Shown here in pieces: positions 75 to 63,294 of a stretch of DNA of 64,000 bases. This DNA is from Planctomyces sp. SH-PL62 (GTDB lineage: Bacteria > Planctomycetota > Planctomycetia > Planctomycetales > Planctomycetaceae), in the NCBI GenBank assembly GCA_945905295.1, contig CAMDPX010000004.1, positions 1-64,000 of the forward strand, in the 5' to 3' direction. Position 1 is the stretch's first letter; each line of letters begins with the position of its first letter. The notes beneath the pieces were generated by a model that saw only the letters and a list, made by a program, of their open reading frames with translations, was not told where the DNA came from and ran no database searches. The position numbers and the translations under genes are program-made.

Positions 75-155
75 CATTCGCTGTCTCCCTAAATTCGCTG
101 TCGATCTCTCATTCAAAACGAAGAGTCGACAGCGAATTTAGAGAGGCAGCGAATG
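75..155. repeat. CATTCG-type paired inverted repeat, 3' of the oxidoreductase gene
   Basis: A 31-nt left arm (75-105) pairs with 124-155 with a few mismatches; the loop is about 18 nt. The arms begin with CATTCG on the outside and contain a second ATTCG. Read outward, the right arm gives GAGG, a short spacer and ATG, the same layout as the elements at 3356 and 31046. It lies 18 nt beyond the stop codon of the oxidoreductase gene and could end its transcript. Confidence 0.8.
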
Positions 156-3355: not shown

Positions 3356-3423
3356 ATTCGTCGTCTCCTTCGATTCGTCGGGACCATTCGGAAGAGCCCG
3401 ACGAATGAAAGGAGACGACGAAT
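3356..3423. repeat. CATTCG-type doublet carrying outward Shine-Dalgarno and ATG
   Basis: A 27-nt left arm (3356-3382) pairs with 3397-3423 with 25 of 27 matches; the loop is 14 nt. Read outward on either strand, each arm gives GGAG, 7 nt, then ATG. Neither start leads into a recognisable gene: rightward it runs antisense into the thioredoxin-like gene, leftward it gives about 25 codons. The same arm sequence recurs at 28191-28283 and 63188-63258, with the arms in the opposite order. The rest of the 3236-3491 gap holds no gene. Confidence 0.88.
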
Positions 3424-3491: not shown

Positions 3492-4490
3492 TCACATCGC
3501 CGCTTGATCGATCAGCTTCTGAGCTTCGCCCGCGGCTTCCGTGCCCGGATGTTCGTCGATCAGTTTCTGAAGTTGCTTGAGCGCTCCTTTGCGAGCGGAT
3601 GGCGAACGTGACGCGGCTTGAATCGCGAGTTCCAGTTTCTTCATGGCGGCTTGCTCTCCTTTGATCGCGTCGTCGGCCGCCAACTCTTTGATGTTCGACG
3701 CGACTTCGGGGGGCACAGCAAAACCTTTGAACTTGTTGGGAATCGCCGAGTACCGTTTATAGGCGTCCCACTTCTTGTCCCCGTCGAGCGACTTCTTCGC
3801 GTCCTCCACTTGTCGGCCGAGATCGTCCAGTACCACTTGATTGAGCTTCGTGGCCCACTCTTTGACGTCTCCCTTACCGATGAGGTTTTTCTTGAGCGTT
3901 TGCGCGGCGTCGGGATACTTGCCGAACTCAATGGCCATCCAGGCCGATTGCAGCGCGGGGGGGAGTTTCTCCGGGTCGACCTTCCATTTGGCGTCGCGCG
4001 AGGCTTCCACCGCCGAGCCTTCGAGGTTGTTGAAGTCGCCGGTCTTGAAGCTGCCGTCCGGCATCAACAGCCGCGCCTGCCGAGTGTTCTCCGGCGAAAC
4101 GATGATGTCGAATTGTCGCTCGAACGAACGATCCGAATCGCAGATGACCGGCCAGGTGACTTTGTTCTTGCGGAGATACGCCTCCAACTGCGACCGTGGC
4201 GTACCGGAGTTCACGCCGATGAACATGACCGGCGTCCCTTCGAACTTCGCCGATTGCATGAGCAGGTTCGGCCAATCGATACCGGTTCCAGTTTCCTCGA
4301 AGAAGTACAACACCGCCGCTTTCCCGGCAAGCATCTCGTTAGTGATCGGCGGCGAATTGATCCAGGCCGCCGATTGAGCCGGTAGTTTTTGAGTCTGTTT
4401 GTTGCCGGCTCCTTCTTGAGCCAACCCGACGGCGGCACTCGAAGCGAGCAATGTCCAAACTAAACACGGGCTGATGAGCTTCAATCGCAT
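3492..4490 (-). CDS. Secreted thioredoxin-fold protein lacking the CxxC motif
   Basis: The 332-residue protein has a signal peptide (about residues 1-24, ending LAQ). A redoxin/TlpA-like domain follows: AAVLYFFEETGTG (58-70), FIGVNSG, then a WPVICDSD segment. Where thioredoxins carry CxxC after the first strand, this protein has EETG (66-69), so it should not do thiol exchange. The C-terminal half is helical, with a TPR-like end. ATG 4490 has GGAG 6 nt upstream; the open frame continues about 110 codons further, through a hairpin element, and that part is not protein-like. Role unknown; a scaffold or degenerate peroxiredoxin-like function is possible. Confidence 0.75.
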   Translation of the reverse strand: MRLKLISPCLVWTLLASSAAVGLAQEGAGNKQTQKLPAQSAAWINSPPITNEMLAGKAAVLYFFEETGTGIDWPNLLMQSAKFEGTPVMFIGVNSGTPRSQLEAYLRKNKVTWPVICDSDRSFERQFDIIVSPENTRQARLLMPDGSFKTGDFNNLEGSAVEASRDAKWKVDPEKLPPALQSAWMAIEFGKYPDAAQTLKKNLIGKGDVKEWATKLNQVVLDDLGRQVEDAKKSLDGDKKWDAYKRYSAIPNKFKGFAVPPEVASNIKELAADDAIKGEQAAMKKLELAIQAASRSPSARKGALKQLQKLIDEHPGTEAAGEAQKLIDQAAM

Positions 4491-4509
4491 GACGGTCTCC
4501 GAATCGTGA

Positions 4510-4583
4510 GACGGAGGGGTCGGGTGTTCAAATTTCAAAATTGCCAAGGCAATTTTGAAATTTGAAGACCCGACCCCTCCGTC
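4510..4583. repeat. Near-perfect 36-bp hairpin of the GGGGTCGGGTGT family
   Basis: Positions 4510-4545 pair with 4548-4583 with one mismatch and a 2-nt loop, the tightest hairpin in the window. The outer part is GACGGAGGGGTCGGGT and the inner part is AT-rich. A related element with the same GGGGTCGGGTGT outer arm lies inside the kinase gene at 53549-53642. It sits between the TPR gene and the thioredoxin-like gene and may act as a terminator. Confidence 0.9.
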
Positions 4584-4620
4584 TACGACGCATCGCAAGC
4601 CGAACGCGATTCCGGCAAGG

Positions 4621-7602: not shown

Positions 7603-7648
7603 GGTGAAAACTCCGTCGGCGACTGGATGTGGAAGTTGGGTGGATCCA

Positions 7649-7754
7649 CAGAATCATGTTTCACGGAATCATGAAAGGCCAAGGCCAATCCCATGAGGTG
7701 TCGGCGTCGAGAATCCCACCGTTTGTTTGCATCATTCTGTGAAACATGATTCTG
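7649..7754. repeat. AATCATG-family inverted pair between divergent genes
   Basis: A 25-nt left arm (7649-7673) pairs with 7730-7754 with two mismatches; the loop is 56 nt. The core is CAGAATCATGTTTCAC. A second member with the same core is at 14961-15151. It lies 46 nt upstream of the macrodomain start and about 115 nt upstream of the pyrophosphatase start, where it could affect either promoter or leader. Confidence 0.85.
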
Positions 7755-7868
7755 TCTGGTCACTGATTCTGTCATTCCAAACGCAACGCTTTCACCGCGC
7801 CAAGGCAAGCACTACAAGTCGCCTCCCGTTGGCGATGCTGCCGCGGAAACGAATTGGAGACTCAAGAA

Positions 7869-14960: not shown

Positions 14961-15151
14961 GACAAAATCATGTTTCACAAAATCATGAAAACAGGTCGGA
15001 TCAATTGGCGACGACGAACCCCATTCAACGCGGCTTCGGAAGTAGCCGCGTTCGCCAGAACGCGGGTTTTCACGATACTCGCCCGCACTCTGGCGAGTAC
15101 GGCTACGGTTTTGAAACTGCTTCTCATGATTTTGTGTCACATGATTCTGTC
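14961..15151. repeat. Nested element: AATCATG pair enclosing a GTAG hairpin doublet
   Basis: The outer arms 14961-14988 and 15124-15151 pair at 25 of 28 positions (AATCATG family, as at 7649). Inside them, 15042-15065 and 15083-15106 form a second inverted pair with GTAG heads and hairpins of the form CGCGTTC-GCCA-GAACGCG. The outer right arm overlaps the likely start and signal peptide of the cytochrome/DUF1553 gene. Confidence 0.85.
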
Positions 15152-18100
15152 GACACTGCCCGCCGCCGAGCCGCCGAATTTCTCGCGGGACATTCTGCCG
15201 ATCCTGTCGGACAACTGCTTCGCGTGCCACGGCCCAGACGCGAAGTCGCGCGAAGCGGACTTGCGGCTCGATCAACAAGACAGCGCGCTGCGGACCGAGA
15301 AGCCAATCATCCTGCCGGGCAAGAGCGGCGACAGTGAGTTGATGAAGCGCATCCTCTCGACAGATCCGGAGGCGGTCATGCCGCCGCCGAAATCGGGACG
15401 CAAGCTGACGGCGACGCAAATGGAATTGCTCAAAGCCTGGATCGACAGCGGAGCCAAATGGGGCAAGCACTGGGCGTTCGAGCCGATCCAGCGACCGGCA
15501 GTGCCAGATCGGAAATCTCAACTCTCAAATCTCAAATCTCAAATTCGGAATCCAATTGATGTGTTTGTTCTCGCGAGGTTGGAGAAGGAAGGTCTCTCGC
15601 CTTCGCCGGAAGCCGCGAAGCACACGTTGATCCGCCGCGTCACGCTCGACCTGACGGGATTGCCTCCGACGCTGGAAGAACTCGATGCGTTTGTCGCGGA
15701 TCAGTCGCCCGACGCCTACGAAAAGGTGGTCGATCGACTGCTCAAGTCCCCTCGGTTCGGCGAGCGGATGGTTTGGGAATGGCTCGATGCCGCCCGCTAT
15801 GCCGACACGAACGGCTATCAAGGCGACCCAACGCGCACGATGTATTTCTGGCGTGACTGGGTCATCGACGCGCTCAACAACAATCTGCCGTTCGATCAAT
15901 TCACCATCGAGCAACTTGCCGGAGATCAACTGCCGAACCCGACGCAGCAGCAACTCATCGCGACCGGCTTCCATCGCAATCACATGATCAACGGCGAGGG
16001 AGGCCGCATCGCCGAAGAGTCCCGTGTCGATTACGTCCAAGACCGCGTCGAGACCACCGGCACCGTCTGGATGGGTCTGACGTTTAACTGTTGCCGCTGC
16101 CACGATCACAAATTCGACCCGCTCGCGCAGAAGGAGTACTACCAACTCTCCGCCTTCTTCAATTCCATCGAAGAGAGCGGCGCGAACGACGCTGGAGGAC
16201 TCGCGAATCCGATCATCACGTTCGCCGGACCCGAACAAAAGAAGAAGCTCGACGACTTTCGCGCCGCCGAGACCGCCGCGAACCAGTCGCGCGATGAACT
16301 CGACCGCAAGCTGCGCGAATCGCAGGCGGAATGGGAGAAAACACTGGTCGCCTCTGGCAGCGTGGCCGAACCGCAGTGGTCAGTGCTGGCCTTTGACACT
16401 TTGAAATCCGAAGCAGGTGCGACGCTTAAGAAGCTGGATGACAGCAGCGTGCTCGCCAGCGGCGAAAACCCCGCGAAGGATTCGTTTGAGTTGACCGTCA
16501 AAGGGGTCGGGAGTCTTTTTCGGTCCGCCACCAACGAACCGACTTCGGACACGAAAGAACAGCGGCCCGAAAAAGACTCCCGACCCCGTCGCGCGACGAT
16601 CACCGGCATTCAACTCGAAGCCTTGCCCGATGACTCACTCGTCAACAAAGGCCCCGGCCGTGCCGACAACGGCAACTTTGTGTTGTCCGAATTGAAGCTG
16701 TTCCTCAACGATAAGCCGGTTGAGTTGTCTGCAATCCGAGCCGATTACGAGCAACCAACGTTCCCACCCGCCAACGCCGTGGACGGCCGCAACGACACCG
16801 GCTGGGCCATCGCCAGTGAATTCGGCAAACCTCACGTCGCCGTCTTCGAGCCGCGCACTCACATCGCCGCTATCGACGGCGAAACGACTCTTCGCGTCCG
16901 CTTGGAATTTCAATCGATCCACGTCGCGCATGTGCTCGGCCGGTTTCGGCTGTCGCTCACGAACGCGCCCGTCGCGTCATTTCGACCGATGCCGGCCGCG
17001 GTTCGCGAGGCGCTCAACATCGCCGCCGACAAACGGAACGACGCTCAAAAGAAGACGATCGCCGAGTTCTACCTCAACAACGAACCGACGCTGCTGACCG
17101 CTCGGCGAACGGCCGACGATGCCAAGAAGGCTCGCGAGGGATTTGAAAAATCTCTACCGCGCACGATGGTGATGCGCGAACGACCGCAACCGCGCGACAC
17201 GTTCATCCTCGTTCGTGGCGCTTATGACAAATTCGCCGACAAGGTCACGCACGGCTTACCTGCGGTCCTGCCACAACCGGCCGAACCAGCGACCAATCGC
17301 CTGGCGCTCGCTCGCTGGCTGATGTCGCCCGAACACCCGCTGACCGCGCGCGTCACCGTCAACCGCTACTGGCAGACGTTCTTCGGCACGGGACTGGTGA
17401 AGACCACCGAAGACTTCGGCGTGCAAGGGGAGAAGCCTTCACACCCCGAACTGCTTGACTGGCTGGCCGCCGAGTTCGCCGAAAGCCGAGAACCGATGGC
17501 CGACAGCCGTGATCCCAACCTCGCCGCTCAGTTGGCGAACCCGCGCTGGAATATGAAACGGCTGATCCGCTTGATCGTGACGAGCGCGACGTATCGGCAG
17601 TCCTCCGTAGGTCAGGCTTTCCAGCCTGACCCAAACGCGTCACCGACGTCCAACGCGAATCAAGTCAGGCTAGAAAGCCTGACCTACGATCCCGAAAACC
17701 GCCTGCTCGCGCGCGGGCCGCGATACCGGCTGCCAAGCTGGATGATCCGCGATCAAGCGCTCGCTGTCAGCGGCCTGCTGGTTGAGAAACAAGGTGGCCC
17801 GCCGGTGAAGGGCTATCAGCCTCCCGGCATCTGGGAGGAAGCGACCTTCGGCCGGATCGGCTATCAGCAAGACACCGGCGAAGCGTTGTACCGCCGCAGC
17901 CTCTACCAATTCTGGCGGCGCATCGTGGGGCCGACGCTCTTCTTTGATGTCGCCACGCGGCAGACCTGCCAGGTCAAAGTCGCACGTACCAATACGCCGC
18001 TGCACGCACTGGTCACGCTCAACGATGTCACGTTCGTCGAAGCCGCACGCACGCTCGCTCAACGAGTGCTGCTCGGCTCCGCGATTGACGACGAGTCGCG

Positions 18101-19913: not shown

Positions 19914-19980
19914 TTCATTCCTCTGGCCCCATTCCTCTGACAAACAACTTTCGCCAGAGGAATGGGGCCAAAGGAATGAA
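19914..19980. repeat. 26-bp hairpin at the 3' end of the second Gfo/Idh gene
   Basis: Positions 19914-19939 pair with 19955-19980 with one mismatch; the loop is 15 nt. The inner motif is CCATTCCTCTG. It touches the stop codon (19981-19983) of the oxidoreductase gene, so it is well placed as a terminator or mRNA-stabilising hairpin. Confidence 0.88.
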
Positions 19981-24301: not shown

Positions 24302-25381
24302 TCACGCCAACGGAACAGCGATGGCCGTGCCGATACCGGTCGCACCGTAGCCGTTGCCGCAGTAGAAGAGCCGCAGATGGTCTCCCTCGCGGACGATATG
24401 CGGGTACTCGGTCATCTTGCTTTCCCAGCCTTTGCCCGTCGGCGGCAACGCGAGGTTTTCGCCGGGTGCGCCACGTTGCCAAGTAACGCCGTCGGAACTG
24501 GTGGCTTCGCAAATGGAGTACGCTCCGAACTTCGTGCCGATGCCGGCGTAGATGGCGCGATAGCCGGACTTCGTCTTCCACACGTTGAGTGCGATCGTCG
24601 CGGCGTTCTCGTAGTCCGCCTCGCGGCGCGGGCGCAGTTCGACTCGCTTGCCGAACCACGTCAGGCCATCGAACGAATGTGCGACGACCGACTGCTTCGC
24701 CTGATCGACCAGCAAGTCTTTGCTCGGCGTGCCGGTCGGAAGCGTGTAGTGCATGCGGTGCAGCGTGCGGCCGTCAGGCTGTGGCAGTTCTTCAATCGGA
24801 CCGCCTCCTGCGATGCCGCGATTCGTTGGCCAGTCGGCGAAACCATCGCCCGTCAGAATCGGATCGGGTGAGTGCTTCGTCCAGTGCAGCAAGTCATCGC
24901 TGGTGGCGAGCCCCATCCCCCAGAATCCTTGCAGCCCGGCACCGCTCTGAGCGCTCCGGCCGGTGTAGTACAGATGCCATTTGCCTCCGATGTGATGCAC
25001 GCACGGCAGCACGCACCACGTCTCGTCGAAGCTCCCTTTGCCGCCGAGATCAAACAGCGGACCGTGCCGTTGCCACTTGGTGACATCGTCGATCGGGCAA
25101 GTCGCGAGACAGATTCGGCGATGCCCCTTCGCATCGCCCCCGGCGTAGAACAGCCAATACTCCCCTTCGCGAGTCACGACGAACGGATTCATGCAGCAGG
25201 ACTTGTCGAACTCACCGCCACCCGGAGGCAAAACCGGATTGCGAGCATCCCGCTGCCAAGCATGAACTCGAAACGGCGGCGACGTCGCGGCATCGTCAGC
25301 CACACCGACACGCGGCAGCGACCAGGCAGACGCTGCCAATGTCACCAGAAATGCTCGCCGAGAATTGGGATGGTCGATCAT
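24302..25381 (-). CDS. Exported five-bladed beta-propeller glycosidase-like protein
   Basis: The 359-residue protein has a twin-arginine-like signal (NSRRAFLVTLAASAWS, residues 6-21). The mature part shows the five-bladed propeller pattern of the GH43/GH32/GH130 superfamily: repeated GEYWLFYAGGD, KWHLYYTGRS, YRAIYAGIG and HLRLFYCGNGYG, each ending a blade, alternating with SDDLLHWTKH and SFDGLTWFGK. The exact glycoside hydrolase family and active-site acids were not assigned. It is the last gene of a five-gene minus-strand run with sialidase, beta-helix, esterase and DUF1501 genes, so it probably acts on the same exported carbohydrate pathway. Confidence 0.8.
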   Translation of the reverse strand: MIDHPNSRRAFLVTLAASAWSLPRVGVADDAATSPPFRVHAWQRDARNPVLPPGGGEFDKSCCMNPFVVTREGEYWLFYAGGDAKGHRRICLATCPIDDVTKWQRHGPLFDLGGKGSFDETWCVLPCVHHIGGKWHLYYTGRSAQSGAGLQGFWGMGLATSDDLLHWTKHSPDPILTGDGFADWPTNRGIAGGGPIEELPQPDGRTLHRMHYTLPTGTPSKDLLVDQAKQSVVAHSFDGLTWFGKRVELRPRREADYENAATIALNVWKTKSGYRAIYAGIGTKFGAYSICEATSSDGVTWQRGAPGENLALPPTGKGWESKMTEYPHIVREGDHLRLFYCGNGYGATGIGTAIAVPLA

Positions 25382-25438
25382 TTCTCGAACACCATGTTTT
25401 GATGAGGAACGAAGGGCGGGCCAACGATTTCTACAGAC

Positions 25439-26776
25439 TCATCGAGTGTTGAAATTCGGCACGAACGGTTCGGGAGAGGCCGCATCGGTCAGCCAGCTTG
25501 TCGGGATGCGAGCGAAGTGTAGCTCCGGTCGATAAGTCTGCCCCGCGCGCGATAGCTCGTACAACAATCCGATCTGTCCGTCAGGCAGCCATGCCAGACA
25601 CGAGTACTCCGCCGGGCCAGCATCAATCAACTTCGAGATCGGCCAGGATTGCCCCTCATCGCGGCTGACGCGCAGCGTCAGATTGCGGCGCGTTGCGCCC
25701 GGCGGATTGCAGAACAACCAGACGTTTTCCAGCGCGCGTGCCTTGGCGAGCGGGGCGGCGTCAGCCCCCCGGTTTGAATTCGATGCGTCCCGGTTGGAAG
25801 TCGATCCCACCGGGGGGCTGACGCCGCCCCGCTCGCCTGGTCCAAGCGACGACAACAACGCCGCCTGACACGCCGGCTCCGGCAGATTCCGATCGAGTTT
25901 CGGCTCGCTCCACGTTTGCCCGCCATCGCGGCTGATCGCGATCGAGCGAAAGAATTGCTTGTTCGTCCCACGCATGTTGAGCACGACCGCTCCGTCGCGC
26001 CGCTCAATGGCCTGGCACTCAGCCGTGTGCTCACCAACAGTCTCGCCGAGCTTCCACGTCGCGCCGCGATCGTCGCTGAAGATCGCATGGCTGCGATACA
26101 TCCCCGAACCGGGCTCGGTGTGATAGCTCGGAATCAGCAGTCGGCCGTTGGCAAGTTGAATGCCAATGCCCGGCCCCGTGCCGTACCAACCCCACTTGTC
26201 GTGCCGAGTGGTCGCCGAGATGTCACGCGGTTCGGACCACGTTGCACCATCGTCGTCGCTGCGAGTCACCCACACGGTGGTCGGCCCGTTGCTCTGGCCG
26301 GCCACGATTTGTGCTTCGCTGAACTTGCCGGGACTGCGTGTGAACGGCAGCCAGATCGTGCCGGTCTCACGATCCACGACCGGACACGGATTCCCCAGCG
26401 TGTCATCACCGAGGTCCGCAATCTTCTGCAACGGTTGCCAAGTGAGCCCCGAATCGAGACTGCGCCGCAGCACGAGGTCGATGTTGCCCGTCAGCCCGCC
26501 GCCATCGACTCGACCTTCGCAGATCGCCAGCAAAGTCCCCTTCTTCGTCACGATCAACGACGGAATGCGATACCGCTTGAACGTCCCGTCGTTCGACACA
26601 AACAACGCTTGAGGAACGGCTCGCGCCCCGCTGGTCGAAGGCTCCGCAGCGCGGACCACTGGCAACACTTCTGACGAGTACGCACTGGCAAATACCGCAA
26701 TGCTCGCGAGCATCATCCGCACGCACCGACTCGCACCCCGCAACGTCAGCAGTTGCCAACGATCATGTTTGAGCAT
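25439..26776 (-). CDS. Exported sialidase (exo-alpha-neuraminidase)
   Basis: The 445-residue GH33-like enzyme should release terminal sialic acids. It has an N-terminal signal (hydrophobic around residues 21-43), the sialidase RIP motif (YRIPSLI) and five Asp-boxes (SLDSGLTW, SDDDGATW, SDDRGATW, SRDGGQTW, SRDEGQSW). The catalytic acid region CEGRVDGGG and the GSGMYRSHAIFS segment are present. ATG 26776 has GGAGCGAGGA upstream. A GC-rich hairpin element (25745-25837) is inserted in frame between CQAALLS and ALENVWLFCNPPG, adding about 31 residues (GERGGVSPPVG to APLAKAR). It belongs to the five-gene sialoglycan cluster. Confidence 0.93.
   Translation of the reverse strand: MLKHDRWQLLTLRGASRCVRMMLASIAVFASAYSSEVLPVVRAAEPSTSGARAVPQALFVSNDGTFKRYRIPSLIVTKKGTLLAICEGRVDGGGLTGNIDLVLRRSLDSGLTWQPLQKIADLGDDTLGNPCPVVDRETGTIWLPFTRSPGKFSEAQIVAGQSNGPTTVWVTRSDDDGATWSEPRDISATTRHDKWGWYGTGPGIGIQLANGRLLIPSYHTEPGSGMYRSHAIFSDDRGATWKLGETVGEHTAECQAIERRDGAVVLNMRGTNKQFFRSIAISRDGGQTWSEPKLDRNLPEPACQAALLSSLGPGERGGVSPPVGSTSNRDASNSNRGADAAPLAKARALENVWLFCNPPGATRRNLTLRVSRDEGQSWPISKLIDAGPAEYSCLAWLPDGQIGLLYELSRAGQTYRPELHFARIPTSWLTDAASPEPFVPNFNTR
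25745..25837. repeat. Perfect 29-bp GC-rich inverted pair inside the sialidase gene
   Basis: Positions 25745-25773 pair without mismatch with 25809-25837 around a 35-nt loop; the arm core is GCGGCGTCAGCCCCC. The sialidase frame reads through both arms. The surrounding enzyme motifs are intact on both sides. Confidence 0.93.
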
Positions 26777-26811
26777 GATTCCTCGCTCCTTATCTGTCGA
26801 AACAGACTCTG

Positions 26812-28251
26812 TTACTTGTCCACGCTCACCGGAATCGTACCGTTGCCGATGCCAGCGGCTTGCACGTCGGCCTCCGCCGCAGCCTGCCAGCGACCGTCGC
26901 GATCTGACGTCACCGATTTCTGAAAGTCAGCAAACGTTTCCGCGGAGAACGAACTCTGTGCGACTCGCACGGAACCGAGGTCGTACCAGTTGCCGATTCC
27001 GCGCCACGTCGCATCTTTCCAGAGATGCATCTGCGGCTTACGCGGCGTCTTGGCCGCAATCGTCCCGCCGAGGAAACAGTGATCAAACGCAACTTCGCCG
27101 CCGGTCGCTTGTAGATCGAGATTCAAGAACGTAACCCGCCGCGCGGTCAGCACGCAGTTGGCCGAGACTCGAACTTCGTTCTCGGTCCGCTCGCGGCGGA
27201 TCAGCACGTTATCCAGCGTGAGCCGACATGGTTCGGCCGGTTTGTCGCGGCCCTGCAAGTAGACTGCTTTCGCTGCGGATGAGAGTACCACCGAATCGCT
27301 CACCGAATACGTGCCGGTGTCGAGGAAGAACAGATCGAAGCCGATGCAATCGCGGATCAGAACGCGGCGGTAGGTTGTTTCGCTGTGACCGGTGTCGCAG
27401 ATTCCGGTCGCGTTGCCGATCGACGTGAAGCCATCAACCCGATACCGGCACTCGCCATGAGCGCTGATCCCGTCGTCCCCACAGTCGATCGCGCGGATGT
27501 TCTCCAGCACGATGTCGCACGAATCCGACAGATTGAAGCCGTCGTTGTAAGGCCGAGTCGCCGTCAGATTCTTCACGACGATGTGCGACGACGTGCCGCG
27601 AGTCAGCACACCCGCCGTGCGTTTTGGGAACTCGATCTTCGATTCCGCCAGCTTTTGTCCCGGAGTCAGTCGTAGCCAAAACGTGCCGTGAATGTAACCG
27701 GCTCGCGCGGTCTTCGAGCGTTCGGCGTCTTTCACGAACGTCCATTCGCCCGGTTGTAATTGTTCCGGCGATTTGAGCGGCTCGCTCGGTCCCTTCGAGC
27801 AACGTTGCATCCGATTGAGCTTGCCATCCATCACAAAGAACCAACGGTCGATGATCGCATCGGTCAGCGGCATCAGATCGTCGTTGCGAAACAATCCCGG
27901 TTCGGCCTCAACCCAACCTTTCGGATCGAGCGGATCGCAACCATCGAGCGTGGCTCCATGCCCATCCAATGTGATCGGCTTCCCCGGCTCTCCCGACTTG
28001 TCGAAGAACGCGGCCCAATCGCGAAACGTCACCGGCTTCAGATGAATCGTGTCTCCCGGCTTCGCCAAGCGAATCGCTTGTGCGATCGTTTTCACTGGCT
28101 GAGTCGCTCCGTCGTGTGCGTCATCTCCGACGGTTGGATCGACATGCAGGTCGAGTGGATTCGCATAGACGGTGGTTGTGAAAGCGAGAAAGAGCCCGAC
28201 GAATTGAAGGAGACGACGAATCAGGACAAGGACAGGCAATCTCTTCATCAT
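26812..28251 (-). CDS. Exported parallel beta-helix protein
   Basis: The 479-residue protein has an N-terminal signal (MMKRLPVLVLIRRLLQFVGL, then a hydrophobic run ending VYA) and a right-handed parallel beta-helix: DPTVGDDAHDGATQPVKTIAQAI is the usual opening of the DUF1565/polysaccharide lyase-like fold, followed by repeated SHIVVKNLTA, CDIVLENIRAIDCGDDGIS and RRVLIRDCIGF turns. Probably binds or cleaves a polysaccharide. The start codon, ribosome binding site and the RRLLQFVGLF part of the signal peptide are encoded by the repeat element at 28191-28283; no other in-frame ATG occurs for about 125 codons. Sits between the esterase and sialidase genes. Confidence 0.85.
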   Translation of the reverse strand: MMKRLPVLVLIRRLLQFVGLFLAFTTTVYANPLDLHVDPTVGDDAHDGATQPVKTIAQAIRLAKPGDTIHLKPVTFRDWAAFFDKSGEPGKPITLDGHGATLDGCDPLDPKGWVEAEPGLFRNDDLMPLTDAIIDRWFFVMDGKLNRMQRCSKGPSEPLKSPEQLQPGEWTFVKDAERSKTARAGYIHGTFWLRLTPGQKLAESKIEFPKRTAGVLTRGTSSHIVVKNLTATRPYNDGFNLSDSCDIVLENIRAIDCGDDGISAHGECRYRVDGFTSIGNATGICDTGHSETTYRRVLIRDCIGFDLFFLDTGTYSVSDSVVLSSAAKAVYLQGRDKPAEPCRLTLDNVLIRRERTENEVRVSANCVLTARRVTFLNLDLQATGGEVAFDHCFLGGTIAAKTPRKPQMHLWKDATWRGIGNWYDLGSVRVAQSSFSAETFADFQKSVTSDRDGRWQAAAEADVQAAGIGNGTIPVSVDK

Positions 28252-28283
28252 TCGTCGTCTCCTTCGATTCGTCGGGCTCTTCT
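28191..28283. repeat. CATTCG-type doublet forming a gene start
   Basis: A 31-nt left arm (28191-28221) and right arm (about 28250-28283) pair with one mismatch; the loop is 28 nt. The right arm supplies AAGGAG and the ATG for the beta-helix gene. The left arm encodes part of its signal peptide. It lies 6 nt from the stop codon of the upstream esterase gene. Related to 3356-3423 and 63188-63258. Confidence 0.93.
28249..28264 (-). promoter_or_regulatory. Ribosome binding site and start codon from a repeat arm
   Basis: On the minus strand the sequence is AAGGAG (28264-28259), 7 nt spacer, ATG (28251-28249), followed by a second ATG. Both the Shine-Dalgarno and the start codon are conserved parts of the repeat arm, seen in the same order at 3356-3423 and 63232-63258. 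Confidence 0.88.
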
Positions 28284-28288
28284 ATTCG

Positions 28289-29425
28289 TCATCGAAACCC
28301 TTCGCGACGAATCGCGATCAACCACATCTCCGCCGCGCGTCGCTGCCCGATGCCGCTGAAGTGTCGGCGTGACTTCGCATCGCCACGATTCTCGCCGGTC
28401 AGCGTGTCGGTATCGGGGCCAGCTCGAAAGCCCGGCAACTTGATCAGTTCGTCGATTGCACCGCGAATGCGACCCTCACCGGCCGGGTCGTTGTAGACGG
28501 TGGGATGATGCGTTGATTTCGCTAACAACCACGGAGGCTCGAAGCCCCACGCCTTGGCGGCGGTCTCGCGGATCGTCTTGAGATTTGCCACATACGTTTC
28601 GCCGGTCGTCTTGGAGATGACGTCGGACTCCCCTTGCTGCCAGAGGACTGCGCGGAAGCGACCGAGCGTTTTCCCCGCTTGCACCAATCGCGGATGCAAC
28701 GAGCCTTCCGGCATCCATTGCATCGATGAGGTTGCTCCAACACCGACATTCGCGAAGCCAATCGGCACGCCCCATTCTTTCAGCATCGCGTCTCCCAGCG
28801 GCGGCCAGATCGAACCACCATCGCTGCCATCCGGTGCTGGTTGAGGATCATTCGCAACTCCCCAAGTTGCTTTCGCCGAATCGAACGCGACGACCCGACC
28901 GAGTGGGTCCGTGACTTTGAATCGCTCGTCGTTGCAGTTGGTCGCATACGACTGCCCCGCCACGACGAAGACTTCACCGACACCAATCGGCTCCACCGCT
29001 CCGAGCGCCACCACGTTGTCATTCATGCGGCCACGAATCTCGAATCGATACCATCCTCCGGCTTGGACGCGCGCGGTGGTGTCGAAGGTTGCTTCCGTTG
29101 AGCGAATCTCCAATTTGGTCCAATCAGTCCCGCGTCCGGTTGCCTCTTTCAAGGCGACAACGCGGTACTCGAAAGCGGCACGCTCAGTTCCTTTCGGCAG
29201 AGTTCCGCGCACGGCGACATCCGCGAATCCCAAAGCGGCTTTCTCAGGTTTTTGCTGCGCGGTAGCGGCGAGATCAAATCCGACTCGCTGGACGACCTGA
29301 TTTGGTTTCGGGGAAGTCAGCGTGATCAGGCTTGGCTCCGCGGCGATTCCCGCCGCGCACAGCATCGCCAAATACGCGAACGGGACTAGGAAGCCAAGAA
29401 CCCAAGAACGATTGGAGAGTTTCAT
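28289..29425 (-). CDS. Exported SGNH esterase, sialate O-acetylesterase-like
   Basis: The 378-residue protein has a signal peptide (about 1-29, ending GIAA), a beta-rich N-terminal module and an SGNH hydrolase domain of the SASA (DUF303) type: the serine block VFVVAGQSYATN, then VGVGATSSMQW, the VLWQQGESD block, and HFSGIGQRRAAEMW carrying the probable catalytic histidine. It would remove O-acetyl esters from sialic acids or other glycans so that the sialidase can act. It precedes the beta-helix gene by 37 nt and follows the DUF1501 gene by 46 nt. Confidence 0.88.
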   Translation of the reverse strand: MKLSNRSWVLGFLVPFAYLAMLCAAGIAAEPSLITLTSPKPNQVVQRVGFDLAATAQQKPEKAALGFADVAVRGTLPKGTERAAFEYRVVALKEATGRGTDWTKLEIRSTEATFDTTARVQAGGWYRFEIRGRMNDNVVALGAVEPIGVGEVFVVAGQSYATNCNDERFKVTDPLGRVVAFDSAKATWGVANDPQPAPDGSDGGSIWPPLGDAMLKEWGVPIGFANVGVGATSSMQWMPEGSLHPRLVQAGKTLGRFRAVLWQQGESDVISKTTGETYVANLKTIRETAAKAWGFEPPWLLAKSTHHPTVYNDPAGEGRIRGAIDELIKLPGFRAGPDTDTLTGENRGDAKSRRHFSGIGQRRAAEMWLIAIRREGFR

Positions 29426-29471
29426 GTTGAAGTCGATTCGTGTGATTCGCGGTACGGCTTTGAATTTCGCA

Positions 29472-30974
29472 TCAGGCGAGGATGCCGTCGATCAGTTCTC
29501 CATGCACGTTGGTCAGTCGGCGTTGGATGCCGTTGTGGTAATACGTCAGGCGTTCGTGCTCGATGCCGAGCAGATGCAGAACCGTCGCGTGGAAGTCATG
29601 CCACGAGACACGGTTCTCGACCGCCTTCCAACCGACCTCATCCGTTGAGCCAAACGCGAGGCCGGGTTTGAGGCCCGCTCCGCACATCCACACGCTGAAG
29701 CCGTATTGATTGTGATCGCGCCCGGCTCCGATGACCCCGGCCGCCGACTGCGAGAACGGAGTGCGACCGAACTCGGAGGTGAACAGCACGAGCGTGTCGT
29801 CCAGCATCCCACGCTGCTTGAGATCGCGAATCAGCGCGGCGATCGGCTGGTCGATGCGGATCGCTTCGCGAGCGTGATTCTCGCGCATGTCTTCGTGACC
29901 ATCCCAATTGATGCGCGGCGATCCGAACGCTCCGCCGGACATCATCTGAATGAATCGCACGCCTCGTTCGAGCAACCGCCGGGCGAGCAAACAACCGCGA
30001 CCAAAGTCGACCGTCGTTTTGTCGTTCAAACCGTAGGCTTCTTGCGTCGCAGCCGTCTCAGCGGCCAAGTCCGCAACCTCAGGCACAGTGAGCTGCATCT
30101 TCGCCGCCAGTTCATAACTGCGAATCCGTGCGACCAGCGCATCATGGCCGGGGACTTTGGCCAACTCTTCCTCCGCGACATCACTGAGACCGATTGGAGC
30201 CGACCGCCGCAGATGTTTGTCATTGAGCTGTCGCAGCAATGCGCGCGACGCGGACTCGGTGCGTGCGTCAATCGGCCGAGCCGGTTGTAAGTCATCAATC
30301 GGCGTACCTCGGCTGCGGATGACGACTCCTTGATGCCGAGCCGGCAGGAATCCATTCGACCAATTGATCGACCCACCCGCCGGCAGCCCGCGCGTGTCCG
30401 GGATGACCACATAGGTCGGCAAGTTGTCGGTATCGTTGCCGAGCCCATACGACAGCCACGCCCCCATCGTCGGGAAGCCGTTCAGGCGGAAGCCCGATTG
30501 CTCCTGAAACGTCGCTGGCGTGTGATTGCTGGTCTCGGCCCACATCGAGTGGATGACTGTCAGCTCATCCGCGACCGTCGCGAGGTGCGGCAATAACTCC
30601 GAGACCCACAAGCCGCTCTCGCCGCGCTGTCGAAACTCCCAATCGTTCTTCCGCAGCAAGCCGACTTGTCCGAAAAACACATCCGGCCGCTCATCACCGC
30701 CGAGCGTTTGACCGTGCCGCTTGGCCAACTCCGGCTTGTAATCCAGCGTGTCGATCTGACTCACTCCACCGTACGCCACGACGTGAATCACCCGCCTGGC
30801 CTTCGCCACGAAATGCGGCGGCGGATCGCTCGCCTCTCCCGGAACGACCGCCGCGCAACCATCGTTGCTCCGCTGGAGCAAACTCGCCAATGCCGCGCCG
30901 CCGAGACCGGTCTTCGTCCAGGAGAAGAAGCCGCGACGACTGAGAAGAGCTGATTTGTCGGAAGCAAAGGTCAT
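29472..30974 (-). CDS. DUF1501 protein, Tat-exported
   Basis: The 500-residue protein begins with a twin-arginine signal (RRGFFSWTKTGLGGAALASLL). The alkaline-phosphatase-like DUF1501 fold follows, with VIHVVAYGGVSQIDTLDYKP, SMWAETSNHTP, WDGHEDMRENH, LVLFTSEFGRTPF and GRDHNQYGFSVWMCGAGLKPG. In planctomycetes DUF1501 genes usually accompany DUF1549/DUF1553 genes; here it opens the sialidase cluster instead. ATG 30974 is used because AGAGG lies 5 nt upstream; the open frame extends 49 codons further only by reading through the hairpin at 31046-31113. Confidence 0.93.
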   Translation of the reverse strand: MTFASDKSALLSRRGFFSWTKTGLGGAALASLLQRSNDGCAAVVPGEASDPPPHFVAKARRVIHVVAYGGVSQIDTLDYKPELAKRHGQTLGGDERPDVFFGQVGLLRKNDWEFRQRGESGLWVSELLPHLATVADELTVIHSMWAETSNHTPATFQEQSGFRLNGFPTMGAWLSYGLGNDTDNLPTYVVIPDTRGLPAGGSINWSNGFLPARHQGVVIRSRGTPIDDLQPARPIDARTESASRALLRQLNDKHLRRSAPIGLSDVAEEELAKVPGHDALVARIRSYELAAKMQLTVPEVADLAAETAATQEAYGLNDKTTVDFGRGCLLARRLLERGVRFIQMMSGGAFGSPRINWDGHEDMRENHAREAIRIDQPIAALIRDLKQRGMLDDTLVLFTSEFGRTPFSQSAAGVIGAGRDHNQYGFSVWMCGAGLKPGLAFGSTDEVGWKAVENRVSWHDFHATVLHLLGIEHERLTYYHNGIQRRLTNVHGELIDGILA

Positions 30975-31045
30975 CAAAGCCTCTCGCGGAATCACGGATT
31001 GGTTCGTCGATGATTTTTTTCGCTCGATCACCGAATCTGTTCCGA

Positions 31046-31113
31046 CATTCGCGCTCCACTTAATTCGCGCGGCCCTCCTGAATTGGCCGCGCGAATTAAG
31101 TGGAGCGCGAATG
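31046..31113. repeat. CATTCG-type perfect inverted pair
   Basis: Positions 31046-31074 pair perfectly (29 bp) with 31085-31113; the loop is 10 nt. The arm starts CATTCGCGCTCC and contains a second ATTCG. Outward on both strands it reads GGAG, 5 nt, ATG, but no long frame follows. It lies in the gap between the ATP-grasp stop and the DUF1501 start. Confidence 0.93.
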
Positions 31114-31154
31114 AACTCCATGAATACGACCGCAATCCGTGCCGCCGTTCAAAT

Positions 31155-33617: not shown

Positions 33618-33820
33618 CGCCACCGGGTTTATCCCATTGGTCTCCACGCAAGTTTGCGAGTCCCATGCAAACGCGTCCGCCTTACCTCTGCGCTCTTCGC
33701 TTCTCTGCGGTGAAAAGAGGCATCTCGAACACTTTTACCGCAGAGAAGCGAAGAGCGCAGAGATGCCGCCGTTTCCGACTATTTCGAGCCGTGTAGAGAC
33801 CAATGGGTTTACGCCGGTGG
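33618..33820. repeat. Nested inverted element: CTCTGCGCTCTTCGC pair inside a longer pair
   Basis: The inner arms 33686-33711 and 33737-33762 pair perfectly over 26 bp with a 25-nt loop. Outside them, the CACCGG...CCCATTGGTCTC arm (about 33618-33641) and its inverse (33796-33820) form a second, looser pair. The EVE start is at 33553 and the DJ-1-like start at 33976, so this occupies most of a 422-nt gap without genes. Confidence 0.88.
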
Positions 33821-45482: not shown

Positions 45483-45567
45483 GGGGTCGGGAGTCTTTTT
45501 CAGGCCGCCGATTGTCATGAGCTTTCACAAGCCCAATGACGGCGGCCTGAAAAAGACTCCCGACCCC
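45483..45567. repeat. GGGGTCGGGAGTC hairpin pair between infB and rbfA
   Basis: Positions 45483-45509 pair perfectly (27 bp) with 45541-45567; the loop is 31 nt. The same arm (first 21 nt) lies in frame in the DUF1553 gene at 16504. It starts 11 nt after the infB stop codon and could weaken transcription from infB into rbfA. Confidence 0.93.
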
Positions 45568-51568: not shown

Positions 51569-54500
51569 CTACTGCGGCTTCGCGAGCCGCACCACATAGA
51601 TGGTGGCGTTGGCGTTGCCGGTGATGAGGTGGCGGCTATCGTCGGTGAAGGTGAGTTCGTGGACTCGGCCGGGGAAGGTCAGGCGTTTTTCGACGACTCC
51701 GCTGGCGAGGTGGATGATCTGCACTCCGGTGGAGGCTCCGTTCTCCCAGAACGAGGCCGCCAGACGACGACCATCCGGCGAGAACGCGACGGCTTCGCAC
51801 CTGGTCATCGCGAAGCTCGCAGTTGGCTGGGTGAGGTCGGACTTCAGGTTCCAGAGTTCCAAACTTCCATGATTGCCTGTCGCGGGAGTCTGACCGTCGG
51901 GGGCCACGGCAAAATGATTACATTGACGCTGCGGCAGCTTGGTGCGCGGGATGATCTGATCGTCTTTGACATCCCATATCTGGATGACGAAGCCACCAAG
52001 CCGTCCGACCAGCGTGCGTCCGGCTTCGGCAAAGGCTAGTTGTTGGACGGGGTGAGGCGACGATTTGATCTCCGACAGCTTCTTGGCGGGAAGGTCGTCC
52101 GACTCCCAACCCCACAGTTCGAGGACCTCGTCCGTTCCGTTGTGCCGGCCGATTGCGAGACGGCGGCCCTCGTCGTTGAGCGCAGCCGATCCTGGGTAGT
52201 TCGCGGTGACACGGCGAGTCGGCGTCAAACGATCTGCGTCGCACCGGAGAAGTGCGATGCCACCCGCACCCAGCTCGCTAACGACGAGCTGACGTTGTGG
52301 CAAAGAGGCACCGAGAACTTCGGACGCCAATGAAACGATAGGTACAGCTTGCAGACCGTTGGTTGTGGGTCGCCAAATGCCAACACGCTGGGATTCCGTT
52401 GAAGTACACAACAAGCGATCGACGACGGCGACTCGTCCGCGGCCGTCTCTTCGTGTTGGATTGGGAAGAAGCGGATCGAGTTCGGTCACTCCGTTCGAGG
52501 AAACATTCCAGAGGCGGATGGCCCCGTTGTGGTGACCGGTGAAGACGGTCTCGCCGTTCGGGGCGATCGCGAGTGTGGCGATATTGTCTGCGGGGAATGA
52601 CGCTGAAGCACTTCCGAGCAACTTCGGTGGATCAGCGGCGAGATCCCAGACGCGGAACGCGCCAGTGTCGTTGATGACCATTCGTTTGGATTGCGTGGCC
52701 GAAGAAATGATTCCCGTGTCGCGAAGGCTGCCGACTCGTTGGGGTTCGCCGTCGTTGATTTTCCAGAACCAAATGCGGCCGTTGCGATCGGCGGTGGCCA
52801 AGCGACCGTCTGACAGGAAAGCGGCGTGGTCGAAGCCCTTCGCGGGGGCGTCGGATTTCTCGTCGGCATCGGCCTTCAACACGATGGCCTCGCGCGGCGT
52901 GTCTCTTCGCAGATCAATCAGATGAATGGAACTTTGCGTGTGGTTGTTATCCGTGGATTTCTTATCCGTAAAACAGAACCAATGTGAATCCGTAGAAAAG
53001 CTGACCGGAGTAGCGTTTCCATGCGGATTGGGGATGACAAACTTGGCGGCTCGCTGAGGTGGAGCGTCGTCACTGAGTTTCCAGAGACCGACGCTGAGAA
53101 CAGAGGTTCCTTCAAGCGCGGCCAGCCAACGGCCGTCTGAAGACGCGGTCGCAAGATGAGTAGAGGCCGCGTCAGGCTCTGTGATCGCGAATTGCTTCTC
53201 CAAAGGCATTCCGTCGTGTGGCTTGGCGAAGATTTGAAGTTCCAAAGGTTTTGTACCGCCGTCATGAGTAAATGCAGCGATCCGGCCATCGGGCAGCAAT
53301 GTCGCGGAACCGACTCCGCCGGTGCTGGGGAAGAATCGATCCGGTTGCTTGGGGTCGCGACCGTACAAATACAGGCCGTCGTTCGTCGTCAGCGTGAATT
53401 GCGTGCCATCCGAAGAAACCGACGACGAACGGATGATGTTTGAAACCCGTCGGCGATGTTGGCCCAGGACGGCGACCAGACCTTCCGGCTGACGGGGGAC
53501 TCGCTCCGCCTCCGGAATCTGCGCGGGATCAAGGTCATCCCACGGGGAGGGGTCGGGTGTGCGAATTTCAGATTTGGCCGTCACAGACTTCTTGTCTTCC
53601 ACACGCTTGTCGGCCAAATCTGAAATTCGCACACCCGACCCCGCGTTCTCGCGACGCTTGATCTCGACGACTTCTCGGCCGAAGCGTTTGAGCGTGATTT
53701 TGTCGCCGATGACTTCGTATTCGTCGGCGTTGGCTCCGGTGAGCACGACCTCGACCTCGCCCGAACGGACGCGCACGGAGTTCTTGCCGAAGGTCAGCGT
53801 CCGCTCTTGCTCCGGCTGAGCCAACTGGACAATTCTGACTTCGAGGCCCGGTTCGGGGGACGTGATGACCAGCTCAGCCCGGTCGCTGATTTTGATCACG
53901 ATCGCGGCGGCAAGGACGAAGAAGATCGCAGCGGCAATGAGCGTGCGTCGCCGTAGGGTGGGACCAGCGGCGCTTCGCCGCGCCGGCCCACCAATGAGTT
54001 TTCGCGGGGCTTCTGGTGGGCCGGCGCTCGATGCGAGCTTGTCCCACCCTACAGCTTCGGCGTCGTCCGTCTTTGTTGTCGGCATCAGCATTGGTTGTGA
54101 GTCAGGTCGGGTAAGAGTCTCCAGACTACGAAGACAATTCGTCAGCGCGTCTTCAAATTCCTTCGCGGTTTGGAATCGCTGCGCGGGTTCACGAGCCATC
54201 GCTTTGCGGCAGATGTTGGCGAGGTTGGGATCGACGTCGGGACGCAGGGATTCGACCGGCGGTGGTGTCTTGGTGGCGATGTCCACGAGCACTCGCGTCA
54301 TCGGGCCTTCAAAGGGGAGGCGGCCGGTCAGCATTTGATACAGCAAGACGCCCAGGCTGTAGATGTCGCTCCGTTCGTCGCCGCCGCTGGCTCCGAGTTG
54401 AATTTGTTCGGGAGCCATATAGGCCGGCGTGCCGACCAGTGAGCCGGATTGCGTCAACTGCGTGTCGGTCTGCGCCAGGCGAGCTAATCCGAAATCCATC

Positions 54501-63066: not shown

Positions 63067-63187
63067 AAAACGTCATCCTTGACGAGTGCTCTCACGCCGG
63101 AGGTGGGGCGCTCTTGCCCGTCCTCGATTGGGGGGCGGGTTATACGCCCGCTCGAAAAATCGAGTCAATTGGGCAGTTGCAAGGAGT

Positions 63188-63258
63188 CCCACGAATGCCA
63201 GGAGACGACCAATTCTTCGACGATTATCCGCATTCGTCGTCTCCTTTCATTCGTCGGG
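63188..63258. repeat. CATTCG-type doublet, third copy, with one decayed arm
   Basis: The right arm 63232-63258 is the same 27-nt arm as at 3397-3423 (inverse). The left arm 63188-63214 matches with a deletion and three changes. Minus-strand ATG with AAAGGAG in front opens a 17-codon frame only. It lies in the gap between the HAD and KpsF-type genes. Confidence 0.88.
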
Positions 63259-63294
63259 CACCTCCGCCTCAAGAATGACAGCTTCGCCAAACGA

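What the first reader, a model, noticed from the sequence alone, without database searches (positions are those of the whole stretch)
28191..28283. Repeat element that created a ribosome binding site, start codon and signal peptide
The minus-strand arm reads AAGGAG, 7 nt, ATG, and this ATG starts the beta-helix gene. The loop and the other arm encode the first part of the signal peptide (RRLLQFVGL). There is no alternative in-frame ATG for more than 100 codons. The element thus appears to have been domesticated as a translation initiation and export module.
Basis: partly seen in the sequence, partly recalled or inferred. Interest (0 to 1): 0.85.

Follow-up and report, generated by a model that had tools for sequence, protein, structure and literature searches.

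The report
Repeat element forms gene's start and signal
A short hairpin-forming DNA repeat, present in over a hundred copies in this uncultured planctomycete, lies across the start of a secreted-protein gene and now encodes its predicted start codon and part of its export signal; the same repeat is built into export signals of three other genes in sister species, so this looks like a recurrent way for mobile DNA to rebuild gene beginnings rather than a one-off.

Summary
Window 28190-28281 is a 92-nt inverted repeat, one copy of a genus-specific family (about 240-260 arms in this genome, none in 47 genomes outside the genus). Its left arm, read on the minus strand, is AAGGAG-7 nt-ATG, and that ATG opens a 479-aa beta-helix gene. 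Spacer and right arm encode MMKRLPVLVL-IRRLLQFVGL of the predicted signal peptide (SP). After the element there is no ATG/GTG/TTG before codon 53.

Three corrections. (1) AAGGAG-N7-ATG is in most arms and usually is not a gene start. (2) Orthologues have SPs without a recognisable repeat, so the element rebuilt an existing export signal. (3) In mRNA the SD is buried in a roughly 30-bp stem; a 14-codon leader ORF with ATGA overlaps at both ends could open it (inference).

The effect recurs. Arms are built into SPs of three further gene families, shared by sister species, with empty sites in others. Arms are 92-100% identical between species where adjacent SP codons are 40-63%. No RAYT is flanked by these arms. 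A GxxExxY (PDDEXK_3) gene is, and GxxExxY genes of the genus often have matching repeats on both flanks (27/37 versus 2/167 controls). Precedent: Yersinia RU-2 in YPO1552.

The parts
28190..28281 (.). 92-nt inverted-repeat element (two arms, 28-nt spacer between the conserved cores)
   Evidence: family
28250..28278 (-). 5' arm on the mRNA (exact consensus AGCCCGACGAATCGAAGGAGACGACGAAT)
28193..28221 (+). other arm (1 mismatch); read on the minus strand it encodes IRRLLQFVG of the signal peptide
28259..28264 (-). Shine-Dalgarno-like AAGGAG, 7 nt before ATG
   Evidence: buried in the hairpin
28249..28251 (-). predicted start codon ATG (second ATG at 28246-28248)
28162..28251 (-). predicted signal peptide MMKRLPVLVLIRRLLQFVGLFLAFTTTVYA (30 codons), about two thirds of it encoded by the element
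   Evidence: hydropathy and inspection; no SignalP available
28248..28292 (-). putative 14-codon leader ORF MTNRRARRIEGDDE, ATGA overlap with the SASA stop at its start and with the beta-helix ATG at its end
   Evidence: function inferred
26812..28251 (-). beta-helix gene (PF13229), 479 aa
28289..29425 (-). upstream SASA (PF03629) gene; its stop lies 7 nt before the element
25439..26776 (-). downstream BNR sialidase-like gene, fused to SASA in relatives
3356..3423 (.). another copy of the family in the window (tail-to-tail arms)
63182..63263 (.). another, more diverged copy of the family in the window

Best explanation
A copy of a small, genus-specific inverted-repeat element sits at the junction between the SASA gene and the beta-helix gene and took over the start and about the first two thirds of an already existing signal peptide. 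Shown: the element belongs to a high-copy family; every standard start codon before the mature domain lies in it; one arm encodes IRRLLQFVGL at the n/h boundary of the signal peptide; orthologues have signal peptides without a recognisable repeat; arms of the same family are built into signal peptides of three further genes, each in two or three species. Inferred: translation starts at ATG 28251 (or 28248). Because the SD sits in a stable hairpin, ribosomes most likely reach it by coupling: they finish SASA, restart at the overlapping ATGA, read a 14-codon leader that melts the 5' arm, stop at the TGA overlapping the new ATG, and restart with the help of AAGGAG. Inferred: elements of this kind usually land just behind a stop codon; where the next gene starts at once they can replace its beginning, which is tolerated because the arm brings an RBS, an ATG and open frames and because signal-peptide starts are permissive. 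Inferred from flanking repeats: the family is spread or maintained by a GxxExxY (PD-(D/E)XK) protein rather than by a RAYT.
For: Family and copy number. Start codons only inside the element. Orthologue signal peptides without a repeat. Removing the element leaves MTNSLAFTTTVYANP, peak hydropathy 0.67 against 2.34 with it. Recurrence: OG2, element in G000 and G010 (87% id), empty site in G002 and G007 with a plain signal peptide (MRANRLALLLLNLLAGLALA in G002); OG3, element in G000, G002 and G005, plain signal peptide in G009 and G003; OG4, a single arm encoding IRRLL[RP]F[VF]GLL in G000, G002 and G010, none in G011. Arms 92-100% identical between species, adjacent signal-peptide codons 40-63%. 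Hairpin MFE -76.4 kcal/mol, z -8.35; SD unpaired probability about 0. Leader ORF with ATGA at both ends. The beta-helix frame is open throughout and 80% identical in DNA to G005. GxxExxY gene flanked by this repeat.
Against: No expression, ribosome or proteome data exist for this uncultured organism. The hairpin could silence the gene instead of serving it; SD accessibility is low (0.09), though not below the 5th percentile (0.04) of my small null of 47 starts. No SignalP-type predictor here, only hydropathy and inspection. The window's own case has no filled/empty pair from a close strain, and the locus is rearranged relative to relatives, so the insertion event itself is not observed. The G005 signal peptide is unexpectedly similar to the arm (17/30 at the same offset; 0 of 244 null starts reach it), so 'no repeat in the orthologue' may really be 'decayed repeat'.
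Confidence: 0.66

Rival explanations
1. The insertion damaged the gene: the hairpin blocks initiation, the element-derived N-terminus is not used, and the gene is silent or a young pseudogene. The ATG is a by-product of the arm sequence.
For: SD and the first two bases of the ATG are paired. Most arm-ATGs in the genome open nothing useful.
Against: 479 codons open without a stop or frameshift and 83% identical in protein to G005; arms are kept in signal peptides of orthologous genes in two or three species in OG2, OG3 and OG4, which random damage would not give.
Confidence: 0.15
2. The element did not insert into this gene; the beta-helix gene was moved behind SASA by a rearrangement whose breakpoint is the repeat (for example recombination between dispersed copies), and the N-terminus is a breakpoint product.
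For: SASA and BNR are one fused gene in G002, G003, G007 and G010; here the beta-helix gene lies between them and the element is exactly at the SASA side of the junction. The G005 N-terminus may carry a decayed arm, so gene and element could have travelled together.
Against: OG2 shows filled and empty sites with the gene order unchanged (DUF1501 gene directly upstream in all), so insertion without rearrangement does occur in this family. This rival changes the history, not the present function.
Confidence: 0.12
3. Assembly error: draft contigs of a 476-contig MAG joined wrongly at a repeat present in more than a hundred copies.
For: High copy number of the arms; fragmented MAG.
Against: The arms (about 30 nt) and the whole element (92 nt) are short relative to reads, and the 28-nt spacer is the only one of that length seen in the sampled elements of this genome; the same arrangement is found independently in other MAGs for OG2, OG3 and OG4.
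Confidence: 0.04
4. The arm resemblance of the signal peptide is a coincidence of coding: the arm frame IRRLLxFVGL happens to look like a signal peptide, and the repeat is kept for another reason (RNA stabilisation behind SASA, binding of a nuclease), the gene start being a tolerated side effect.
For: Arms are conserved far beyond what signal-peptide coding would require; most elements lie behind stop codons like REPs.
Against: In OG4 only the coding arm is left and no hairpin can form, yet the arm is kept in three species.
Confidence: 0.2

Closest known systems
RU-2/YPAL element in Yersinia YPO1552 (Delihas 2007; PMC2759123, PMC2229807)
   Different: Different, longer element (168 bp); essentially one locus; no portable SD-ATG in the arms described; no filled/empty comparison across sister species as for OG2.
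Rickettsia palindromic elements (RPE; reviewed in PMC2229807 and PMC10969869)
   Same: Repeats read in frame inside protein genes and tolerated; some at N-termini.
   Different: RPEs add an insert to an existing protein; here the arms carry RBS, start codon and signal-peptide core.
REP/REPIN with RAYT (PMC3733652, PMC3116915)
   Same: High copy number, head-to-head and tail-to-tail dimers with variable spacers, mostly just behind stop codons between co-directional genes.
   Different: The single arm has no stable hairpin of its own but a direct repeat (CGACGAAT twice, 17 bp apart); no RAYT is flanked by it; a GxxExxY gene is.
MITEs such as Correia/NEMIS and ERIC
   Same: Small inverted-repeat elements without a gene; fusions to genes known.
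   Different: No parent transposase with these termini found; no target-site duplication demonstrated.

Membership tests
REP/REPIN | unit is itself a 20-40 bp palindrome with a stem-loop | tested here: not met
   a single arm folds at only -3.8 to -4.5 kcal/mol as RNA; its internal order is a direct repeat
REP/REPIN | associated RAYT (Y1_Tnp) flanked by the same repeats | tested here: not met
   13 PF01797 loci in the genome, none with an arm in the fetched flanks of about 1.5 kb
REP/REPIN | high copy number, extragenic, inverted dimers (HH, TT) | tested here: met
REP/REPIN | GTAG or CGTC tag at one end of a palindrome | tested here: inconclusive
   the complement reads ...CGTCGTC..., but no palindrome stands beside the tag
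MITE | terminal inverted repeats, small, no gene of its own, repeated | tested here: met
MITE | target-site duplication and a parent transposase with the same termini | not tested
   no close filled/empty intergenic pairs were collected; only Y1 transposases were checked
Element built into a signal peptide (RU-2/YPO1552 type) | repeat encodes part of a signal peptide whose orthologues have an unrelated one | tested here: met
   by hydropathy and inspection, not by SignalP
GxxExxY (TIGR04256/PF13366)-associated repeat | a GxxExxY gene flanked on both sides by the repeat | tested here: met
   G000:C174 gene 3599-4420 between elements 3541-3610 and 4456-4525; 27/37 GxxExxY genes of the genus share a flank repeat against 2/167 other genes

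The most novel reading that the evidence does not exclude
GxxExxY (PD-(D/E)XK_3) proteins each serve a cognate family of short inverted repeats, a counterpart of RAYT/REP built on an unrelated nuclease. Because the arms of this family carry SD-ATG and an open, signal-peptide-like frame (IRRLLxFVGL), the family repeatedly replaces the beginnings of exported-protein genes, with translation dependent on melting of the hairpin by coupled ribosomes.
Probability: 0.35. Interest if true: 0.8.

Novelty: new variant of a known kind. Interest (0 to 1): 0.62.

Why it matters
It gives a natural series of gene-start replacements by mobile DNA within one genus, with filled sites, empty sites and a half-decayed state (OG4). 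That makes the question of how bacterial start sites and signal peptides turn over testable by comparison. It also ties a high-copy repeat family to GxxExxY proteins, for which I found no described function, through flanking repeats; no paper in the library that I could find mentions this link.

Tried and rejected
RAYT as mobiliser: rejected, no arms near 13 Y1_Tnp loci. Other apparent arm starts (MFS L063, PQQ-like L151, C-N hydrolase L107, Rieske L077, DUF1501 genes L101, L110 and L138) were not counted, because the genes have later start codons of their own, in several cases with their own SD. OG6 in G007 (L294), where a single arm gives SD and ATG of an oxidoreductase, was left as suggestive only. 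Joining the flanks of the window element to find the ancestral start: in frame (MTNSLAFTTTVYA) but not signal-like, so the insertion was probably accompanied by loss of the old start. Plasmid search for GxxExxY: only two distant hits, not useful. A paper search for MITE, signal peptide, start codon and RBS together gave nothing relevant. The first alignment of orthologue N-termini used the wrong strand for some loci and was redone.

Full report
What is there. On the minus strand the region reads: SASA stop (TGA, 28291-28289), 7 nt, then a 92-nt inverted repeat (28281-28190), and the beta-helix gene begins inside that repeat. The 5' arm holds AAGGAG, seven nucleotides and ATG (28251). Spacer codons and the 3' arm then give MMKRLPVLVL-IRRLLQFVGL, followed by FLAFTTTVYA, nearly all from outside the element. 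An in-frame TAG lies immediately outside the element; beyond the element the first GTG is codon 53 and the first ATG codon 127. The start codon therefore lies in the element, unless a non-standard codon is used or the gene is dead.

The element is one of a family. Five arm matches occur in the window against none in 100 shuffles. The genome has 239 arms at up to 3 mismatches and none for the reversed control. Eleven of the 12 genomes of the genus have the arm (1 to 50 matches in the others) and none of 47 genomes outside the genus does. The core arm is GCCCGACGAAT-NN-AAGGAGACGACGAAT, usually followed by G: two CGACGAAT direct repeats 17 bp apart with a variable dinucleotide. Arms occur head-to-head around variable spacers, tail-to-tail, or alone. 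Most copies lie between genes, typically 5-50 nt behind a stop codon. The window's AAGGAG-N7-ATG is thus a family feature (187 exact AAGGAGACGACGAATG), not something made for this gene. Of 154 arm-ATGs followed, most open short ORFs, and the longer ones mostly belong to spurious frames or to genes with their own later start.

Was the signal peptide created by the element? Orthologues in G005 (83% identity), RYN_438, LacPavin (G001) and casp40 (61-68%) all have N-terminal hydrophobic export signals of different sequence and no recognisable element. Export is therefore ancestral. The element now supplies the start, the n-region and the first part of the core. Cutting it out leaves MTNSLAFTTTVYA in frame, which has no signal core (hydropathy 0.67 against 2.34). 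The G005 N-terminus is nevertheless more similar to the arm than expected at exactly the same distance from ATG (17/30; 0 of 244 null starts). It may be a decayed copy, which would make the replacement older than that split. This is suggestive only.

The locus is rearranged. In G002, G007, G010 and G003, SASA is fused to the BNR sialidase-like domain that here lies downstream of the beta-helix gene. The beta-helix gene with the element sits between the two halves, and the element marks the junction. G005 has the beta-helix gene elsewhere, behind a different DUF1501 gene.

It recurs. Gene calling around about 115 sampled elements of this genome, and about 65 of its relatives, found three more genes whose signal peptide contains an arm, with no usable start between arm and mature domain. 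OG2 (no Pfam family): G000 and G010 read MKGDDEFM-xxxx-IRRLLSFVGLLLL; G002 and G007 have the empty site (MRANRLALLLLNLLAGLALA in G002). OG3 (PD40 plus laminin-G-like): the element lies in frame in a long n-region in G000, G002 and G005; G009 and G003 have short plain signal peptides; at the same place G010 carries another inverted-repeat family and G007 a GGGTC-type repeat that provides the ATG. OG4 (BNR): only the coding arm is left, MNSQIRVPIRRLLRFVGLLITL and relatives in G000, G002 and G010, none in G011. Between species the arms of OG2 and OG3 are 23-25 of 25 identical, while the next 60 nt of signal-peptide code are 24-38 of 60 and the spacers 4/11 to 13/17. Signal-peptide function alone would not hold the arms so constant, so homogenisation or renewed insertion is likely as well; arms of one element also match each other at the variable dinucleotide more often than shuffled pairs (59 against 29 of 130). 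Presence patterns of OG2 and OG3 do not fit one tree without losses or repeated insertion.

Mechanism. In the mRNA the arms pair: MFE -76.4 kcal/mol, z -8.35, with the SD unpaired probability near zero. A ribosome cannot easily bind AAGGAG. The sequence offers a way round. The SASA stop overlaps an ATG (ATGA, 28292-28289) that opens MTNRRARRIEGDDE; this leader runs through the 5' arm and ends in TGA overlapping the beta-helix ATG (ATGA, 28251-28248). When the 5' arm is held single-stranded the rest of the fold drops from -98 to -42 kcal/mol and the SD is free by construction. In OG3 an upstream start lets ribosomes read through the 5' arm in frame; in OG2 such upstream starts exist but are weak. 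This relay is inference and needs the reporter test.

What spreads it. The 13 Y1 transposase (RAYT) loci are not flanked by the arms, although several are flanked by the GGGTCGGG repeats also seen in this window. A two-domain GxxExxY gene (PF13366, TIGR04256) on G000:C174 lies between two copies of this family. Across the genus 13 of 15 two-domain and 14 of 22 one-domain GxxExxY genes share a repeat between their two flanks, against 2 of 167 other genes, one of those two being the C174 gene itself. Several of those repeats have the same direct-repeat-in-arm design, for example CGCACACGGATG on C20 and CTCTGCG on G005:C73. I read this as a repeat/nuclease partnership comparable to REP/RAYT; the activity is not shown. 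The library has no paper on it under these names.

Known relatives. [quoted passage not shown]). REPs at N-termini are often thought to be misannotation (PMC3733652); OG1 to OG3 escape that objection because no later start exists before the mature domain. The phenomenon is thus a new variant of a known kind. What is new is a different family with SD-ATG in its arms, recurrence in four genes, sister-species comparison, and the link to GxxExxY.

Limits. There are no expression data, no signal-peptide predictor, MAG sequences of draft quality, one genome per species, and a simple codon-usage gene caller of my own.

Noticed in passing
L346 (G000:C174) 3599-4420; L358, L356, L359, L338, L351, L354 and others: GxxExxY (PDDEXK_3) genes in this genus are flanked on both sides by short repeats, a different family for different gene copies; 27 of 37 against 2 of 167 control genes.
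   Followed up: partly
window 24302-31121: SASA and BNR are one fused gene in G002, G003, G007 and G010; here they are split by the beta-helix gene, and BNR has its own signal-like N-terminus.
   Followed up: partly
window 75-155, 7648-7755, 14961-15151, 19914-19980, 31046-31113, 33686-33762: Several other inverted-repeat families whose arms also contain a direct repeat (e.g. ATTCGCTGTC, CTCTGCG, AAAATCATG); the 33686 family resembles the repeat flanking a GxxExxY gene in G005:C73.
   Followed up: partly
window 4509-4584, 16503-16587, 45483-45567, 53549-53642: GGGGTCGGG-type inverted repeats of the kind found around Y1_Tnp (RAYT) genes of this genome (L165, L166, L167).
   Followed up: partly
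L242 (G007, OG3 gene) and L243 (G010, OG3 gene): Two other repeat families occupy the start of the same gene: in G007 a GGGTC-type repeat provides the ATG (MKFEDLTPARCAFLCLLVLV), in G010 a CATTCCTTTG-type repeat lies in the n-region. The site looks like a hot spot.
   Followed up: partly
L294 (G007:C336) 1507-1576: A single arm gives SD and ATG (AAGGAG-7-ATG) at the start of a GFO/IDH/MocA oxidoreductase, without a second arm and hence without a hairpin.
   Followed up: partly
G005:C188:2662-2722: Arm unit repeated in tandem with 17-bp period (three overlapping matches), suggesting the arm is built of 17-bp units.
   Followed up: no
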